From positions 1-36,594 of the IMG/VR virus record IMGVR_UViG_3300036785_000510: a stretch of 36,594 nucleotides of DNA. One strand, 5' to 3'. Made by a program: the position numbers and the translations under genes. Shown here piece by piece: positions 3,065 through 28,940 of this stretch. This DNA comes from a virus. Each line of letters opens with the position of its first letter. Position 1 is the first letter of the stretch. The notes below the pieces were generated by a model, which ran no database searches, was not told the origin of the DNA, and saw only the letters and a program-made list of their open reading frames with translations.

Positions 3065-3772
3065 GTGCCGTTAAGTGCTGCTCAAATTGTACTGAGAGCT
3101 TGTCAGATAGCAAACGTTCCTGGCATGGTTGTTCAGGCCGGCCAGTATCTTAACGATATCCTTACCGAGCTTAATCAAGAATACGATTTGAATATTGCGT
3201 TGCATACAGCTATAGTTACTATTAATGGCGCTACTGCTACAGGTCCTTATCCGTTACCCACCGATTATCTCAGGGCTTCGTCGAGAGACATAACTTATAC
3301 CATTAATGGCGTTCCATATATTCTTACGCAGATAAGTTTGGCTCAATTCGATAGTTTAATAAATACCGTCGCCGATGCCGGTTATCCTTATAATTATGCT
3401 ACCGACGTTTCTACTAAACCTGCAAGCTTATTTGTATATCCTCCCCCTGTATTAACGATACCCGTCCAATTTAGATATTGGGGGAATTTGCCGGATATAC
3501 CGACACCCGAGACTTCGCCAATCGTTCCTTGGTTCCCAAGCCAGAATTATTTAAAAGTCAGGCTTGCCGGGGAATTGATGCGGGATGCCGGAGATCCTCG
3601 CGCTAACATTTATCTTGGCGACGGTCCTTCTGGAGCGGTAGGGATATTGAGACGGTGGTTAAATTTGCAAGGTGATAAAGAAGATATTATAGAACATGTT
3701 CAATTAGACGCGAGATTTTTCGGAGCCAGTAGAGCATACTATCCGCCCAGTAAGGCCACCGGAGGGATTTAG
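3065..3772 (+). CDS. head-to-tail adaptor protein (P22 gp4-like/tail accessory)
   Basis: 235 residues from GTG at 3065, 3 bp after the preceding stop. The helical N-terminus (SAAQIVLRACQIANVPG, GQYLNDILTELNQEYDL) followed by beta segments (YPLPTDYLRASS, IPVQFRYWGNLPDIP) and a C-terminal helix (VRLAGELMRDAGDPR) is the pattern of the tail accessory factor family that seals the portal in P22-like and related short-tailed phages. In that family the protein forms a ring under the portal. It precedes the gp10-like gene, interrupted only by a homing endonuclease. Assignment is by pattern, not search. Confidence 0.65.
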   Translation: MPLSAAQIVLRACQIANVPGMVVQAGQYLNDILTELNQEYDLNIALHTAIVTINGATATGPYPLPTDYLRASSRDITYTINGVPYILTQISLAQFDSLINTVADAGYPYNYATDVSTKPASLFVYPPPVLTIPVQFRYWGNLPDIPTPETSPIVPWFPSQNYLKVRLAGELMRDAGDPRANIYLGDGPSGAVGILRRWLNLQGDKEDIIEHVQLDARFFGASRAYYPPSKATGGI

Positions 3773-7348: not shown

Positions 7349-8083
7349 ATGGGTGGCGGCGGTGGAGGTGGCGGCAATCCGGCTACAGGATTTTCTCCTT
7401 CCTCGGGAGTAAGAGCATCGGCTAATGCTGCCGATCTGTCGAATTTAACGCAGGCTATGAAGGGGCCTCTGTATCAAGAAGAGAGTGCGTTTTTCGGCCT
7501 TACGCCTCAATGGAGTCCGTCTACCGGACAAGGGGGCGGGTTCGGGGGCGGGTTCGGGGGACAAGGTTTTAAAGGTGAAGGTAGCGACATTGGTACGACT
7601 ACTTTCGGTACGGCTCCGGGTCCTACGGCTTTCGGCATTCCGACTAGCAGCATAGCCGGGCAACTAGCCCTGAATGCGTTCGACCCTCAGAATGCTTTGC
7701 GTGCGCAACAAGAACAGCGATTGACGGATCAGACCAATAGCCAGCTAGCGGCGAGGGGCTTAGGCAACACTCCTATAGGAGCCGCTACTACGTCCAATGC
7801 TTTAGGCAATTTCGATATAGGATGGAACGCGCAACAGTTGCAGAACGAGATGGCGGGAGCGCAAGGGCTACAGAATTTGTATCAGGGCTTTGCCCAGACC
7901 GGTGCTACGATAGCCCAACCCGAAGAACAGGGAGCGCAGATAAATTTAGGTTTGGAGAGTATCGCTTCGCAAGCGCAGACCGAACAGAATAAGTTACAAG
8001 AACAGGCAAGAGAAGCTAATCAGAGCAGTCTCATGAGCGGGCTGAGCGGCGTAGGCGGAATGCTGGGTAAGAAAGGCGGCTAA
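7349..8083 (+). CDS. internal virion (ejection-type) protein, Gly/Gln-rich
   Basis: 244 residues. ATG at 7349 is preferred over 7343 because GGGAG at 7338-7342 then has normal spacing. The N-terminus is a run of eight glycines, followed by a low-complexity Gly/Phe section (GGGFGGGFGGQGF) and then a helical Ala/Gln-rich half with many regularly spaced polar residues (ALRAQQEQRLTDQTNSQLAA). This layout resembles P22 gp7/gp16-type or T7 internal core proteins that leave the virion with the DNA. No enzymatic motif. It heads a set of three internal-protein-like genes. Confidence 0.6.
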   Translation: MGGGGGGGGNPATGFSPSSGVRASANAADLSNLTQAMKGPLYQEESAFFGLTPQWSPSTGQGGGFGGGFGGQGFKGEGSDIGTTTFGTAPGPTAFGIPTSSIAGQLALNAFDPQNALRAQQEQRLTDQTNSQLAARGLGNTPIGAATTSNALGNFDIGWNAQQLQNEMAGAQGLQNLYQGFAQTGATIAQPEEQGAQINLGLESIASQAQTEQNKLQEQAREANQSSLMSGLSGVGGMLGKKGG

Positions 8084-8086
8084 ACG

Positions 8087-11000
8087 ATGGGCGGCCAAAG
8101 CGGCGGAACGTCCGACAGCTATTCGCCGGGTCAATCGGATTACGGTAGGCGGTTAGCGACGCGAACGCAGGGGATTGCCGAGGCGGGGTTCGGCCCGCCG
8201 CCTCCTCCCGCGCCGGTCGATCCGGCGTTCAATCGAACCATCGGGCCGTATCTTCCTACCGGGCGAGCCCCGCTCCCGCTTGCGAATCCTTTTCGTCAGG
8301 GAGATCGGCCGCCCACCGGGCAAAACGTGCCGCTTCCGCCGAGGCGTCCCGGAGAGTATGGCTCTCCACGTACTTACGCACCCGGTGTTTCGACGAGCGC
8401 AGCAGCGGGGCAACCAGGACCGGAACGGCCAGCCTATATGCCGGTGCCTCCAGGGCGGCCATTTCCGGCAGGGGCAACGAAAAAGGCGCATCCGGCGGGC
8501 GAACTTGCGGGCCATATCGGGAGCATCATGTCCGATCCCGCGATGCAAGGTTCGAAGTTTTCGTTGAGCCCGAAAGGCGCGTCCGTGTCTTTGCCCTTGC
8601 CGATTATCGGGCAACTTTTGAACGCTTTGGGATTAGGCGGCCGGGGCGGCCAGTCCGGGCAAGGCGGCGGTGTCGGCGGTCTTGCTGCGCTGCAAGGCGG
8701 CCAGGGCGGCCAGCCCGGCCAAGGCGGAATGCCTCAGTACATCCAACCGGCCGGGGGCGGCGGCATGGTTCCGATCACCAATTCGATGTACGACCCGCGC
8801 ACCGGGCAGTTCACCGGGGGAACCGGCGTAGACTGGTGGCGCCGGACTCATGGCGGCGGCGCTGCACCTGTTCCGGGTGCTGCGCCTCAACCGGGTGTCG
8901 CCTCCCGGCCGGGCGCCGCGCCCGCTTCCGGTGCTCCTCCGGGCGGTTCGACCGGTCCCGCACCGGTATTTACCGGGCAGCCGCCCCCGAGCGGGGGGTA
9001 TACGGCGCCCGATAGAGGGGCTGTAAATCCGCCAAGCATTCCTCTTGGCGGGGCTCCCGTATGGGGCGTCAAAAATATTCCCTCGATGGTTGCCGGGGAT
9101 TTATCCTCGCGCAGTACCTATGCTCATAAGGGCGAGCCGCTGGCCAGCGTCAATGGGTTCGTCGTCCATCATACGGGTGGCCGGGGGACGCCGGAAAGCA
9201 TAATGAATACCTTTAATCAACGCGGCTTTCCTGCTCAGTATATTATGGATAGGGACGGTAAAATCTATTCGGCGCTTCCAGAGGGAACTCGCGGCTCGCA
9301 TATCCAGAATGCTAAGAATGGAAGCGGCTTGAACAACCGTAACGCGCTTGGAATGGAGATCATCGCCAAGAACGATGCGGATGTGACGCCAGCGCAAAAG
9401 CAGGCGGCGGCGGCGTTCATCGAGGCGAAGTCGAAGCAGTACGGCTTTCCGAGCTCGAATGTTTATGGCCACGGGGAAGTCAATCCCGGCCACAAGGAAG
9501 CCGATGAGGGACTCTCGGTAGCGCGCATGGTTCGCTCCGGCGGCGGCGGCGGCGGCGGTGGCGTTCCGTCTCCGCAGCCTAGCGGCGGCGGCGTAGCGGC
9601 GAGGAGAGGAAGGGGCAGGGCGGGGGAATCTGGTCAAGAGGGCGGATTCAATTACGACGATTATGCTAAAAGGGTGAGCGGGGTCGAGTCTGCTGGAGGA
9701 ACCAATTTAGGCAAGCGCGGCAACGAGTATCAAATGGGTGCGCCCGAAATAGCTCAATACGGTTCCGGCCCGGAAGGAATGCGGAGAATGACCGAAGATT
9801 ATTATAGGCAAATGACAACCAATCTCGGTAGGTCTCCAACTCCTCAAGAGTTATATCTTGCTCATCAACAAGGTGTTCAAGGTGCTACTAAATTACTTAA
9901 TAACCCCGACATGCCTGCCGGGAAGGTCGTGCCGCCCAGCCATATTATCGGCAATGGCGGCGATCCGAACATGCTCGCCAAGGATTACGTCGCTAAGCAG
10001 TTTGGCAGATACGACGAGGCAAGCGGGGGAGACGCGGGCGCTGCTCCGCGTGCCGTTCCGGGCGTTTCGACGGCGGCGGGGCAACCGCAATCCGGCACCG
10101 GCTGGCAGCCTACGACGTTTCGGGGCAACACATTCCAACCGGGCGCTGGCGCAGGCGGCGTTGGCGCTCCGGGCGCGGCGGGGGCCGTCTCTCCTCCCAC
10201 GGTTCCCGCCGCCGCTCCTCCGACAGGCGACGCCGGTATGCAACCGGCTGCTTATCCTCCAGGCACTTATTATCAGCCCGGCATGGAGCCTTCGGAACGA
10301 GGCACGCTCCCGCCCATCCAACCGCAACGGCCTTATACCGAATCGCCCGATTATAGGCCGGAACCGCCTAGTCCCGGTGCCGTAGAACAACATGTATACA
10401 ACCAGCTGGAGGGACAATTGCGCCAAGAAGCGCCTGCGTATGGCGGCCGTTCGGGTGGGAGCGGCTTGTTGGGCATGTTAGGCGGGATGGACAAAAGCTT
10501 TAGAGGCAAACGTCAACAAGAGTTCGAGAGATCGAGCGAAGGTCGAATAAGAGAACAAGTTAAGCTAGCGAAGGATGAGGCTACAACAAATTACAAGGAT
10601 TGGGAGGACGGCAGGAAAGAATGGAATCGAAGGGAAGAAGATCGCGTTAAGCAAGAGAATATTTATAGGACAGACGCTTTGAGGGAAGCTAGAGGCGAAC
10701 ATAAAGAAGCCGTTACGGAGAAGCATCGAGAGCAGATCGAGGTAGATAAGGAGAGAACTCGTGCCGATGTCGAACGGAGATCGCAAAGAGCGGCGGCAAG
10801 GACATCTCTCGAAAGCAAAATTCACGATCTGGAGAACGATAGTACCCGCCTTCGAGGGGAGATAAAAGATCAGATGAAGGATGTCGAGAAGGCAAAAAAA
10901 GAGTTAGACGATAATACCGGATATTGGGCAGATAAGGATAAACATGATAAAGCTCAAGAGGACTATGATGCCCAAAAAGATTTGCTCGATGGATACAAAA

Positions 11001-24301: not shown

Positions 24302-26186
24302 CTATCTTCCAAGATCTCCATAGCGTTCGCTTATCTTTCCTTCCGCTTTGAACGACGGGCCGTCTGACCACCAAGGAGACGGTCTACACGCATGTTCGAC
24401 GATAATGTCCCTTGCTTCCTCGGCTCTATTGTCAGGCACTATAGTAACATATTCGTCGTGGACAAGCAAGCACGGATTTATCCCATGCTCGCGTTTCAGA
24501 GACAGCATCAAATCCGACAAACGAATCCTAGCCAGTGCTTGGCACAGAAACTCGGTGAGAGCCCCGCCCCAATAGCGGGTGTATCCCTTAGTTAATAAGG
24601 TTTGTGCGCCATCGGAACTTATGCCTTGTTGTCCATCTCCTTTATTCGTTCGTCTCCACATTTTTAATTCGGCATTGGACCACACAAGGTCGAATTTATG
24701 TTCAGTACCATTAGGCATTATAAGAGTAGAATCTTCTATAACTACGGGCAGAATAAAATGTGTATGACGAGTATCTTTATAATAATTGCTAGTCTCCATT
24801 AATTTTAATCTCTTGTCGCAATGCTCCCAAAACTCGACTACCTTATAATGATCGAACCTATATAACTCGATAGCTTTGTCCGTAATTTCTCTATGAAAAT
24901 TATACCCAGCGCCCCTTGCTGTAAAAGCGCATTTGTCTTTTCCTTGGCCATAACCGCATCCCAAAACTATTTTTTTGCTAAAATCGCGCTCGATTTTTTG
25001 GTTTTTCGTAACCTCGTACCCAAACAATTTCGTACCGAACTCGCAATAAATATCTCTCCCCTCGTCCAGTGCTTCTAACTTATCTAGCTGTCCCGATAAG
25101 GCACACAAAATGCGGTACTCGATCTGGGAAAAATCGACCTTGACGATTTTATGGCCGAGCGGCGCCGTAAGGCCCGAGCGAAGAGTGGATTTCTTAGGAA
25201 GATTGGTCATATTCGAAAGATCGCCGCCGCCCCAGCGGCCGGTCACGGCGCGAAAATAGCCGAGGTAGACCGGCATGGAGCCGCGCCGGGCCATACCAGC
25301 CAGCCGGGCCGCGCGAGTCTCTTTGATCGTGCTTTTCACGCTGAGCCGGGCGCGCGCGATCTCGCCCGCCGCATCGTCTCGCGCGGAAAGCTCTTGCATA
25401 TACATATCCGAAGCGGCAAGAGCCGGGATCGGCACGCGAATGCCGTTTTTTCGAGGGGGACCGAGTTTCATCTCGACCGTTTCCCCGGCTTCGCCGAGCA
25501 GGCGAACCATCGTGGCGCTCGATTGCAAATGTGCCTCAGTTATATCTAAATCGGATAGAAGCAGATCTTTTCTTTTTCGTTCTTCGCTAGCTTCTCTTTC
25601 GAATAACTCTACATCTCCTATAAATTTAGGTTCCGTAAACATTCTTACAGTCATATCTACGATACCATACTCTTCTTTCGGGAAATCTTTTTTCAGTATC
25701 TCGTAAAGCTGCATGGTAAGACGGCAATCGTTTAGGCAACCGTCGCACAATTCATTTTGAAGGTTTCGATCCATATCCTTCCAATGTTTTCCTATAAATT
25801 TATTGTATGGAGTTGTCTTTTCTCCTAAATTATATTTTGTACTTAACGCTTCTAAACTAGCTTTTTGCAGAGGGCCATTTACGGCTCTCGACATCGACAT
25901 AGTACATATAATACCGCGAGGTTTTATCCCAAAAATATGATTAAGAATAAAACAATCGAACTGAGCATGATGACAAATGACAACCATATCTGCCCATAAT
26001 TGGTTAGTAACCCACTCACGAATAGACACTCTACCACGAAGTACAAAACTATATTTGTTAGAAACAAAGACACCAAGACACAAAGTTTCAAACCTAGGGT
26101 CACGTATATACTCCTCCGCAGTCATCTTTTTTATCGTATATTCGCTATCGTAATAGCTCTCGAAAATCCAACACCAACTTGATCAT
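24302..26186 (-). CDS. family A DNA polymerase with 3'-5' exonuclease; +1 frameshift at the Exo I motif
   Basis: Polymerase motif A VKVDFSQIEYR, motif B RDFSKKIVLGCGYGQG and motif C LLVHDEYV are intact. Exo II is CHHAQFDCF; Exo III has GCLND where a Tyr is usual. The long open frame starts at ATG 26125 without a ribosome site and lacks Exo I. An upstream ATG (26186) behind AAGGAGGTGC encodes MIKLVLDF and then runs into TAG. Skipping the single C at 26162 (TTT-C-GAG) joins DF to ESYYDSEYTIKK and restores the D-x-E Exo I motif, giving 627 residues. The span given includes the shift. Programmed +1 frameshift, mutation or sequence error are all possible. Confidence 0.85.
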
Positions 26187-26212
26187 TGGTGCACCTCCTT
26201 ACTGGTAGGCCA

Positions 26213-28564
26213 TCAGTACTTGCATTGTTTCCAGTCCTCTTGTTCATCGTCATAGTTAACTCCAAATCTTTTCGACCAAGCGGCTCTGAGAACTTTTAGT
26301 TCCGGGAATTGATAACCTCTTGTGTTTCTATCTATACTTCTACATTTTATAAATCCATATTTTTTTAAAAAAGAAGATAGTTCCATTTTAGTTACATTAT
26401 ATTTTCGTTTAGAAGTACATTCGTTAACTTTATCGGACAGCGTAGCATAATCTACTGTATAAGGCTCCTTATAGTTATTATGCGTTGCCGGTATAGCACC
26501 TTCTTCGATCATCTCGCTAAGCCATTGTTCGAGATCGTTCATAGACGATTGTTTTTGCGACGAGAGAGCAGGATTATTTAGTATCGTAGTCGGGTGCCAA
26601 TCTCCTAAGTTGATACGTTGCAGATCGTACAACATCGCTTCTACGCCGCCGTTTTTTATTTCATGTATTAATGGAGTAAAATAAACTTTGATTTGTTCTT
26701 GTGTAGAATTTGCATTAGAATACTTATTGCATACATCGAATACTGCATATCTACGCGCATCGTAACTAGCTGGCACTACCCATTCTTTATTAGAAGCTAA
26801 AATAAGAGACATTCTATTATCAACTTCAAATGCTCCCCAAAATTTCGGCTCTATCATTATTTTTTTTTCAGTAATTCTACTGTTAAGGATACCTTTAGCT
26901 GCTTTATCGCCTGCATAATAAGCCTCGTCTACATATGCGAATAAACAATTTTGTAGGTGTCCATTAAACTGTCCTATAAAATGCCTTGGATCGGTTATAT
27001 GTAAAGCATGAATACCAAATATCGTTACTAAACATTGCACAAATATACCTTTGCCTACACCTTCTTCACCTCTAAAAACAAGGGCTACTTTGGGTAACTT
27101 TTCCGGGTTTTGAATAACCCAAGAAGCGAATTTAAGAATATACCTGGCATTTTCTTTATCACCATTAGCTAGTATGTATTTTATATGACTTTTCATTAAG
27201 TTCCAATCGCCTTGCCGTGCCTCGACGCCGAATCCCGACCATAAATTAAGTTTGTCGCCCGGTAGAATTTCTCCACCTACAGGATCGAGGTCTACTGCAT
27301 TATATTGTCTTCTCTCTTTTCTTCCAAACCATATTCTTGCAGCTTTAGCAGGTTGTAAAACGTTCTTCGCACCATTGATCCACACGGTTTCGTTTTCGTG
27401 CGCATCGAAGAAGTCTTGTTTCTTTTGCACCTTTAGAATTTTTTGCCTGCCAATCATGTCTAAATATCCTACTGCGCATTTTCCGCCATAATTCTGTATA
27501 ACGAAGAATTTCTTATTATATTTCTCTATTACTTCATCGGTTTTTAATAGCTCGGGAGGTACATCGGGAGGTACATCGAACGCTCCCGTCCAACCATGGC
27601 GGCGTGCGCGGGCTACTAAACTCCCTACCGTGATTTTAGACCCCTTGTACGGTCTGCCGAAGCTGTTCCATGTGTCGTTCTGATCTTCGGCGTCGTATTT
27701 GTGCGAAATAGACGACCAATCGGACCACAGATCGAACGCCGTTTCCCCCCACCCCAATTCGTAAAGAGCCATGCCCGTTTCGAGCCATATCTGTCTGTCG
27801 TCGCGCTCGATCAAAGGGATCGCGTCGAGCGCCGCGCGAAATTTCGCTTCGGCTTCCGGCGAATGTGCCGTAGCGCCGTTTTGACTGCTCTCACGTTTAT
27901 AATTTTTTAACTCCACGACATTATCGGGCATTATATGTTTGAACTTGTTGATATCGTAAGGTCCTCTATTAAAGAAATTATTCGATATGCCAACTTCTTT
28001 AACTTCATTATATTTATAATTATAAGTACCAGGGCAACGAAGAATACGAACGGGATCGGCTATTACGGCAGCATCCCCCGTTGGAATACCAAGATGTTTT
28101 AATGCTAGAGATTTTAAAGCGTCGGCTGTAGGTTCCCATTCTTCTTTCGAGAGAATTTGCGTTAATGGCCACCAACATTGTAACCCATGACCAGAAAATA
28201 CAAGACCGGGGAAGGGGATTTTAATTTCGTTACAGAAACTTGACAATGCTTTAAGGGTTTCTTCTGAGGATGCCCAAGTTTTTTTAGCTCCCCAATCCAA
28301 ATCCATCCTAAACGATTTAATATATCGAACATTATAAGAATTTCTACCATCTTCTACGGTATTAAATGTCGATGTTGCAAAATATGTATCGACATTTTGT
28401 GTGTGGCTCCACATTGTCTCCCATAATTCTTCTACGGAAGAACAATAACCTTCTCCCTTTACGTCTCTAGTTGTTCTTGTTAATTTCCATGTAGCGATAA
28501 AAATACCTTCGGAAGGCAATACGCGCTCTAAAAATTCAATAGCTTTCTCTTTTCGAGTTGGCAT
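26213..28564 (-). CDS. primase-helicase: archaeo-eukaryotic primase, PriCT-type and SF3 helicase domains
   Basis: 783 residues from ATG 28564, chosen for the GGGGGG ribosome site (a longer start at 28594 is possible). The N-terminal primase has FRMDLDWG (metal-binding Asp pair), FSGHGLQCWW (catalytic His) and VRILRCPGTYNYK, as in AEP primases. A PriCT-2-like helical segment follows (IERDDRQIWLETGMALYELG ... ITVGSLVARARRHGW). The C-terminal helicase has Walker A GEEGVGKG, Walker B LFAYVDEA and an Arg-finger region DARRYAVFDV (D5/DUF5906-type SF3). It primes and unwinds DNA for replication. Bases about 27570-27870 are markedly GC-rich. Confidence 0.9.
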   Translation of the reverse strand: MPTRKEKAIEFLERVLPSEGIFIATWKLTRTTRDVKGEGYCSSVEELWETMWSHTQNVDTYFATSTFNTVEDGRNSYNVRYIKSFRMDLDWGAKKTWASSEETLKALSSFCNEIKIPFPGLVFSGHGLQCWWPLTQILSKEEWEPTADALKSLALKHLGIPTGDAAVIADPVRILRCPGTYNYKYNEVKEVGISNNFFNRGPYDINKFKHIMPDNVVELKNYKRESSQNGATAHSPEAEAKFRAALDAIPLIERDDRQIWLETGMALYELGWGETAFDLWSDWSSISHKYDAEDQNDTWNSFGRPYKGSKITVGSLVARARRHGWTGAFDVPPDVPPELLKTDEVIEKYNKKFFVIQNYGGKCAVGYLDMIGRQKILKVQKKQDFFDAHENETVWINGAKNVLQPAKAARIWFGRKERRQYNAVDLDPVGGEILPGDKLNLWSGFGVEARQGDWNLMKSHIKYILANGDKENARYILKFASWVIQNPEKLPKVALVFRGEEGVGKGIFVQCLVTIFGIHALHITDPRHFIGQFNGHLQNCLFAYVDEAYYAGDKAAKGILNSRITEKKIMIEPKFWGAFEVDNRMSLILASNKEWVVPASYDARRYAVFDVCNKYSNANSTQEQIKVYFTPLIHEIKNGGVEAMLYDLQRINLGDWHPTTILNNPALSSQKQSSMNDLEQWLSEMIEEGAIPATHNNYKEPYTVDYATLSDKVNECTSKRKYNVTKMELSSFLKKYGFIKCRSIDRNTRGYQFPELKVLRAAWSKRFGVNYDDEQEDWKQCKY

Positions 28565-28583
28565 ATTATTAGCCCCCCTAATA

Positions 28584-28940
28584 TTAATTAGCATTATCTA
28601 AACGGGCTTTTTCGAAAGCCGCCTTTATTTCTTCAAGATAATTTTTGGATAATTCAGTTTCTTTTAGCGAGTTTTCATCCACTCGTATTTGAGCGGTAAT
28701 TTGTGCCGAAGCTAAAAGACCTTTAATACGTAGTACAGTTCTATAATTCTTATTGTCCTCGGCAGGCAATGGCATATCTAATATTTTTTGCGCCATTGCT
28801 AATGCAGACATTGTATATTTAGCAAATTCTCGACGAAGATGAGAAGGGTCGGCCGGAATTATATCTTGTGCTGTTGGATAACTTGGAAACAAATCTATTA
28901 TTTCGGCCAACTCTTCTAATTCGTTGTTAGAATCTGTCAT
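28584..28940 (-). CDS. hypothetical helical protein
   Basis: 118 residues with AGGGT before the ATG. Acidic N-terminus (NNELEELAEIIDLFPSYPT) followed by long helices (YTMSALAMAQKILDMP, KETELSKNYLEEIKAAFEKA). No motif recognised. It ends 19 bases before the primase start, so it is the preceding gene of the same operon and could be a loader or accessory factor, unproven. Confidence 0.6.
   Translation of the reverse strand: MTDSNNELEELAEIIDLFPSYPTAQDIIPADPSHLRREFAKYTMSALAMAQKILDMPLPAEDNKNYRTVLRIKGLLASAQITAQIRVDENSLKETELSKNYLEEIKAAFEKARLDNAN

What the first reader, a model, noticed from the sequence alone, without database searches (positions are those of the whole stretch)
26125..26186. DNA polymerase Exo I motif restored only by a +1 shift at TTT-C-GAG
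The ATG behind the very strong site AAGGAGGTGC encodes MIKLVLDF, then TAG within a few codons. The long frame lacks Exo I and its first ATG lacks a ribosome site. Dropping C26162 joins LDF to ESYYDSEYTIKK, the expected phage PolA start. A Phe tRNA on UUU can re-pair with UUC in +1, and the A-site codon is CGA, often slowly decoded, so a programmed shift is plausible. Two products (with and without exonuclease) would follow. A single-base error or an exonuclease-null mutation is the simpler alternative.
Basis: partly seen in the sequence, partly recalled or inferred. Interest (0 to 1): 0.75.

Follow-up and report, generated by a model that had tools for sequence, protein, structure and literature searches.

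The report
Recurrent frameshift site in phage polymerase
Nine uncultured-phage sequences, in about seven separate lineages, carry an extra base at the same codon of their DNA polymerase gene, always in a context where the ribosome can slip forward by one base, so the proofreading site can only be made by a +1 frameshift just after translation starts.

Summary
On the minus strand, the only well-initiated start (ATG 26186, Shine-Dalgarno (SD) AAGGAGG) reads MIKLVLDFRELLR-stop. The 619-codon polymerase frame begins one base later at GAG. TTT-C-GAG splits the Exo I motif D-F-E. It is not a lone error. Three relative scans gave about 245 distinct relatives. All but six keep D-x-E in frame; those six, two contigs from targeted scans and the window have exactly one extra base at this codon. 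These nine are TTT_CGA (6) or TTT_TGA (3). Control scans for TTT+A, TTT+G and TTC+N found no polymerase. This is what P-site tRNA-Phe re-pairing (UUU to UUC/UUU) predicts. The state needs at least 7 changes on a tree of 166 polymerases. No simple frame break was seen elsewhere in 175 polymerases. Every +1 gene has an unusually strong SD (median -11.5 versus -4.8 kcal/mol), in 7 of 7 independent contrasts. Best reading: recurrently evolved +1 recoding at codon 8, like influenza PA-X (UUU_CGU) and prfB (CUU_UGA), needed for full-length proofreading polymerase. Regulation is inferred. No direct protein evidence exists.

The parts
26191..26200 (-). Shine-Dalgarno AAGGAGGTGC; duplex energy with anti-SD -13.4 kcal/mol, stronger than that of all 32 other genes scored in the window
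26145..26186 (-). zero-frame leader ORF ATG...TAG, MIKLVLDFRELLR; supplies M1-F8 including the first catalytic Asp (D7) of Exo I
26159..26165 (-). shift site TTT-C-GAG: P-site TTT (26165-26163), skipped C 26162, +1 Glu codon GAG (26161-26159) = second Exo I residue
   Evidence: conserved as TTT_C/T GAR in 8 further contigs
24302..26161 (-). +1-frame family A DNA polymerase ORF (619 aa): Exo II, Exo III and polymerase domain
   Evidence: Pfam PF01612 and PF00476; PHROG 17
25955..25972 (-). Exo II motif HHAQFD (Asp conserved in all +1 relatives)
25727..25729 (-). Exo III Asp (D145 of the +1 frame), conserved; the usual Tyr four residues earlier is Gly, as in 42 in-frame relatives
26123..26125 (-). 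internal ATG (Met of conserved KKMT), first annotated-type start of the long ORF; no SD
26213..28594 (-). upstream gene, primase/helicase (context)
   Evidence: PHROG 1156

Best explanation
The polymerase is made by +1 ribosomal frameshifting at codon 8. Ribosomes load at a strong SD and translate M-I-K-L-V-L-D-F. [quoted passage not shown] Ribosomes that do not slip stop after a peptide of 8-44 aa (13 in the window). The strong SD probably offsets the ribosomes lost at the shift. Shown by sequence: split motif, conservation, restriction to re-pairable sites, SD association, repeated origin. Inferred: that the ribosome rather than RNA polymerase makes the jump, the slow A-site decoding, the efficiency, and any regulatory role.
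For: Split D-F/E motif with closed upstream +1 frame. D and E of the motif are invariant in 43 homologues of the L224 branch. A same-phase extra base occurs in L122, L127, L128, L196, L215, L224, L231, L234. L122, L127, L128 and L196 were returned by scans that did not ask for a shift, as were the contigs of L215 and L224. All nine are TTT+C or TTT+T. Scans for TTT+A/G and TTC+N gave no polymerase. L224 keeps TTT although only 5% of its Phe codons are TTT. L231 and L234 are separate assemblies, 97% alike over 999 bases, both with the extra T. The frame of constraint switches at the site in L122/L128: all changes at third positions of frame 0 before it and of frame +1 after it. No simple frame break elsewhere in 175 polymerases. 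SD is much stronger in +1 genes (p 5e-6; 9/9 versus 19/157 at or below -8; 7/7 independent contrasts) and ranks first or second in its contig. Literature: UUU_CGU is the PA-X shift site, with tRNA-Phe preferring UUC, and a UUU_C class was predicted (PMC3498833). prfB uses CUU_UGA, rarely TTT TGA (PMC12421855).
Against: No protein, reporter or read-level data. The shift form is a minority (6 of about 245 relatives found by the relative scans), comes and goes (at least 7 changes), and the window's nearest relative, L204, is in frame. No prfB-like internal SD (p 0.07) and no significant downstream structure (p 0.19), so efficiency is unknown. CGA is not rare in most of these phages' own genes.
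Confidence: 0.82

Rival explanations
1. Tolerated indel ('savior' frameshifting). A T insertion in the TTC-GAR or TTT-GAR of Exo I happens by mutation and persists only because this site slips well enough; there is no regulatory use. (This shares the +1 shift with the best explanation and differs only on purpose.)
For: Sporadic distribution with at least 7 changes. One T insertion converts either in-frame form into the observed site (codons). No dedicated stimulator found.
Against: Retained in L215 and L224 at 72% DNA identity and against codon bias in L224. Consistently strong SD suggests adaptation to the shift, though compensation would also follow a tolerated indel.
Confidence: 0.4
2. Sequencing or assembly error.
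For: The extra base lies in a short T run; no reads could be inspected.
Against: Same base at the same codon in nine contigs from different metagenomes, down to 27% protein identity. Only re-pairable types occur. No simple frame breaks elsewhere in 175 polymerases. The strong SD association cannot come from errors.
Confidence: 0.03
3. Exonuclease-null gene: translation starts inside (ATG 26125) and yields a polymerase without proofreading.
For: An in-frame ATG exists in the window. Some family A polymerases lack proofreading (general knowledge).
Against: Internal ATG lacks an SD. L231/L234 have no nearby in-frame ATG; their first start-type codon is a GTG at codon 26. The leader codons keep D and F. 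The Exo II Asp is conserved in all nine, and the Exo III Asp in seven (Glu in that column in L231/L234). Null mutations would not always fall in one slippery codon.
Confidence: 0.08
4. Transcriptional slippage: RNA polymerase skips one T, so a share of mRNAs is in frame.
For: Loss of one T gives the same protein.
Against: The run is only 3-4 T. The literature read here puts productive slippage at runs of about 8-9 or more (PMC5009743, PMC3711429).
Confidence: 0.04

Closest known systems
Influenza A PA-X +1 frameshift (UCC_UUU_CGU; PMC3498833)
   Same: P-site UUU re-pairing to UUC, Arg CGN codon in the A site, +1 direction, no known 3' structure
   Different: Eukaryotic ribosome, low-level side product deep inside an open frame. 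Here phage genes, codon 8, and the shift makes the main product
prfB (release factor 2) +1 frameshift (PMC12421855)
   Same: +1 shift near the 5' end needed for the functional protein; UGA in the A site in L196/L231/L234; rare prfB genes also have TTT TGA
   Different: No SD-like element 3 nt upstream of the slippery codon. Most sites here have CGA rather than a stop. No obvious autoregulatory product
dnaX (tau/gamma) -1 frameshift
   Same: Recoding in a replicative polymerase gene
   Different: -1 direction, heptamer plus SD plus stem-loop, makes a shortened subunit; here +1 and required for full length
Phage recoding in tail assembly chaperone (mostly -1) and Listeria phage PSA genes
   Same: Caudoviricetes recoding
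   Different: Structural genes; no replication polymerase case was found in the library searched

Membership tests
Family A DNA polymerase with DEDD 3'-5' exonuclease | Polymerase and exonuclease domains recognised | tested here: met
   PF00476 5e-17, PF01612 1.7e-10; PHROG 17; Klenow homology of the L224 family
Family A DNA polymerase with DEDD 3'-5' exonuclease | Exo I D-x-E present | tested here: met
   Only after the +1 shift
Family A DNA polymerase with DEDD 3'-5' exonuclease | Exo II and III Asp present, Exo III Tyr | tested here: inconclusive
   Both Asp present; Tyr is Gly, as in 42 in-frame relatives. Activity not testable
Programmed +1 ribosomal frameshift | Two overlapping frames joined by one functional protein | tested here: met
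Programmed +1 ribosomal frameshift | P-site codon able to re-pair in +1 | tested here: met
   TTT followed by C/T in 9 of 9; non-re-pairable types absent
Programmed +1 ribosomal frameshift | Slow or empty A site (stop, rare or poorly decoded codon) | tested here: inconclusive
   TGA in 3; CGA in 6, but CGA is not rare in most of these phages' genes and is forced by GAR
Programmed +1 ribosomal frameshift | Evolutionary conservation of the site | tested here: met
   Conserved in pairs L215/L224 and L231/L234 and recurrent across at least 7 changes; but a minority state
Programmed +1 ribosomal frameshift | Frameshift product detected | not testable with these tools
   needs reporter or mass spectrometry
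prfB-type +1 site | Internal SD 3-6 nt upstream of slippery codon | tested here: not met
   median -2.4 kcal/mol, not significantly different from in-frame relatives
PA-X-type UUU_CGN site | UUU_C with CGN A site | tested here: met
   TTT_CGA in the window and 5 relatives; it works like it, not homologous to it

The most novel reading that the evidence does not exclude
Phages have repeatedly evolved a translational gate at codon 8 of their replicative polymerase, inside the proofreading active site, paired with a strong SD, so that synthesis of the proofreading polymerase depends on the decoding state of the infected cell (Arg-CGA tRNA or RF2 availability).
Probability: 0.35. Interest if true: 0.85.

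Novelty: new variant of a known kind. Interest (0 to 1): 0.7.

Why it matters
It would be, as far as the library searched shows, the first set of +1 recoding sites in a phage replicative DNA polymerase. It would show the UUU_C class predicted from influenza PA-X working in bacterial viruses. Because the shift has arisen several times at one codon, with TTT_CGA and TTT_TGA as alternatives and in-frame sisters as controls, it is a natural experiment on what makes a +1 site. It also means automatic annotation misses the first catalytic motif of these polymerases and would call them exonuclease-deficient.

Tried and rejected
Single-protein search of IMG/VR with the window polymerase found no relative, and alignment A1 was too divergent to search; solved by DNA patterns. 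The prfB-like idea, an internal SD, was tested and rejected. Downstream stimulatory structure: no significant difference. Phage-encoded tRNA for the shift: no tRNA in the window or eight loci by ARAGORN, which would miss odd anticodon loops. Pfam score did not improve when the leader was added, because the Pfam match begins near Exo II; Exo I completeness rests on the alignments. Prophage or host occurrence: none in genome contigs. Cultured phages: nearest (Rhizobium RHph_TM, Pseudomonas KPP25) are in frame.

Full report
OBSERVATION. The window (one IMG/VR virus record of 36,594 bases) carries a family A DNA polymerase on the minus strand. Behind AAGGAGGTGC (26200-26191) the ATG at 26186 opens MIKLVLDFRELLR-TAG. 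The polymerase frame starts with GAG at 26161 and runs to 24302 (619 aa). Upstream of GAG that frame has a TGA after 8 codons and no ATG/GTG/TTG in between. Skipping C26162 gives MIKLVLDF/ESYYDSEYTIKKM, which lines up residue for residue with in-frame phage polymerases such as MKKLTLDFETYYDKEYSLKKM. The two residues joined, D and E of Exo I, are invariant in a 43-sequence alignment of the L224 branch of the family.

RELATIVES. An IMG/VR scan for the conserved block K-M-T..E.YIRDPRFE, which does not ask for any shift, gave 120 contigs. One hundred and nineteen have the motif in frame (a few with another residue in place of F). One, L122, has the same +1 extra base at the same codon, and it was then the closest relative of the window polymerase. 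A scan allowing any Phe codon and any extra base returned exactly three contigs, L122, L127 and L128, all GAY-TTT-C-GAR. Further relative searches and pattern scans raised the set to nine: TTT_CGA in the window, L122, L127, L128, L215, L224; TTT_TGA in L196, L231, L234. Classification of distinct relatives gave 165 in frame, 9 shifted and one unresolved by the script but in frame on inspection, and then 71 more in frame. Scans for TTT+A, TTT+G and TTC+any base yielded only chance matches with no polymerase.

WHY THIS IS NOT ERROR. Elsewhere in 175 polymerases there is no simple frame break; the few interruptions are contig ends, a split gene, a stop in L025, and insertions. The shift state needs 7 changes on a 98-row tree and 8, at least 7 on well supported branches, on a 166-row tree. 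It is kept in L215 and L224 at 72% DNA identity and in two assemblies 97% alike, L231 and L234. In L224 only 5% of Phe codons are TTT, yet the site is TTT. In L122/L128 all differences fall at third positions of frame 0 before the site and of frame +1 after it.

AN UNFORESEEN CORRELATE. The +1 genes have much stronger SD sites than in-frame relatives: median -11.5 versus -4.8 kcal/mol outside the L007-L126 group, p 5e-6. All nine are at or below -8 kcal/mol against 19 of 157 in-frame rows; that cut was chosen after seeing the data. In phylogenetically independent contrasts all 7 go the same way (sign test p 0.016). At a cut of -9 four of seven contrasts go that way and three do not differ. Within its own contig each is the first or second strongest. 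SD strength was not part of any search pattern. The simplest reading is that strong initiation offsets loss at the shift; this is inference.

MECHANISM. The permitted types are exactly those in which tRNA-Phe (anticodon GAA) can move from UUU to UUC or UUU. The same P-site logic was worked out for PA-X (UCC_UUU_CGU), where the authors predicted a UUU_C class (PMC3498833). For prfB, CUU_UGA is standard and TTT TGA occurs in some genomes (PMC12421855); UUU is among the next most slippery codons when that codon is randomised (PMC10885494). Because the next in-frame codon is GAR, the A-site triplet must end in GA, so CGA/TGA follow from re-pairing alone; a special role of slow CGA decoding is not separately shown, and CGA is not rare in most of these phages. 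There is no internal SD and no significant downstream structure. Zero-frame peptides are 8-44 aa with stops at different places, so the shift is not tied to one stop codon.

PRODUCTS. The internal ATG has no SD in the window, it is the conserved Met of KKMT in in-frame relatives too, and L231/L234 have no nearby ATG. In L127 the exonuclease and polymerase parts are separate ORFs, so there the shift gates only the exonuclease part.

ORIGIN AND NOVELTY. One inserted T turns GAY-TTC-GAR into TTT_CGA and GAY-TTT-GAR into TTT_TGA, so Exo I is a natural cradle for this recoding. No cultured phage, no genome in genome contigs and no paper found in the library shows it. I class it as a new variant of a known kind (+1 recoding). 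Open questions are efficiency and whether it regulates or is merely tolerated.

Noticed in passing
L128 2913-3548: Polymerase gene interrupted after MAVRG by an ORF with a GIY-YIG-like start (MLTSSGIYEIVNNVTGDCYVGSA); polymerase resumes near 3541. Possible intron or homing endonuclease insertion; no Rfam match.
   Followed up: partly
L196 from 4001: Polymerase reading frame carries two intein-like insertions, after SQIE and after KLVEN.
   Followed up: no
L127 9831-9343 and 9267-7933: Exonuclease and polymerase parts are separate ORFs in the same frame, 75 bases apart, the second behind GGGGGAG.
   Followed up: partly
L181 and L204: Polymerase gene broken by insertions of about 550 and 220 bases between homologous segments.
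   Followed up: no
window 25741-25727 (Exo III): Exo III Tyr is replaced by Gly in a subfamily (window, most +1 relatives and 42 in-frame relatives), a DEDD variant.
   Followed up: partly
L122 and L127, just after the shift site: The unshifted frame reads CGA CGA CGA because YYDDE/YFDDE codes so one base out; a possible further stall for unshifted ribosomes.
   Followed up: no
window 7501-10500: G+C about 0.60-0.63 against 0.37-0.57 elsewhere, in the amidase-domain gene.
   Followed up: no
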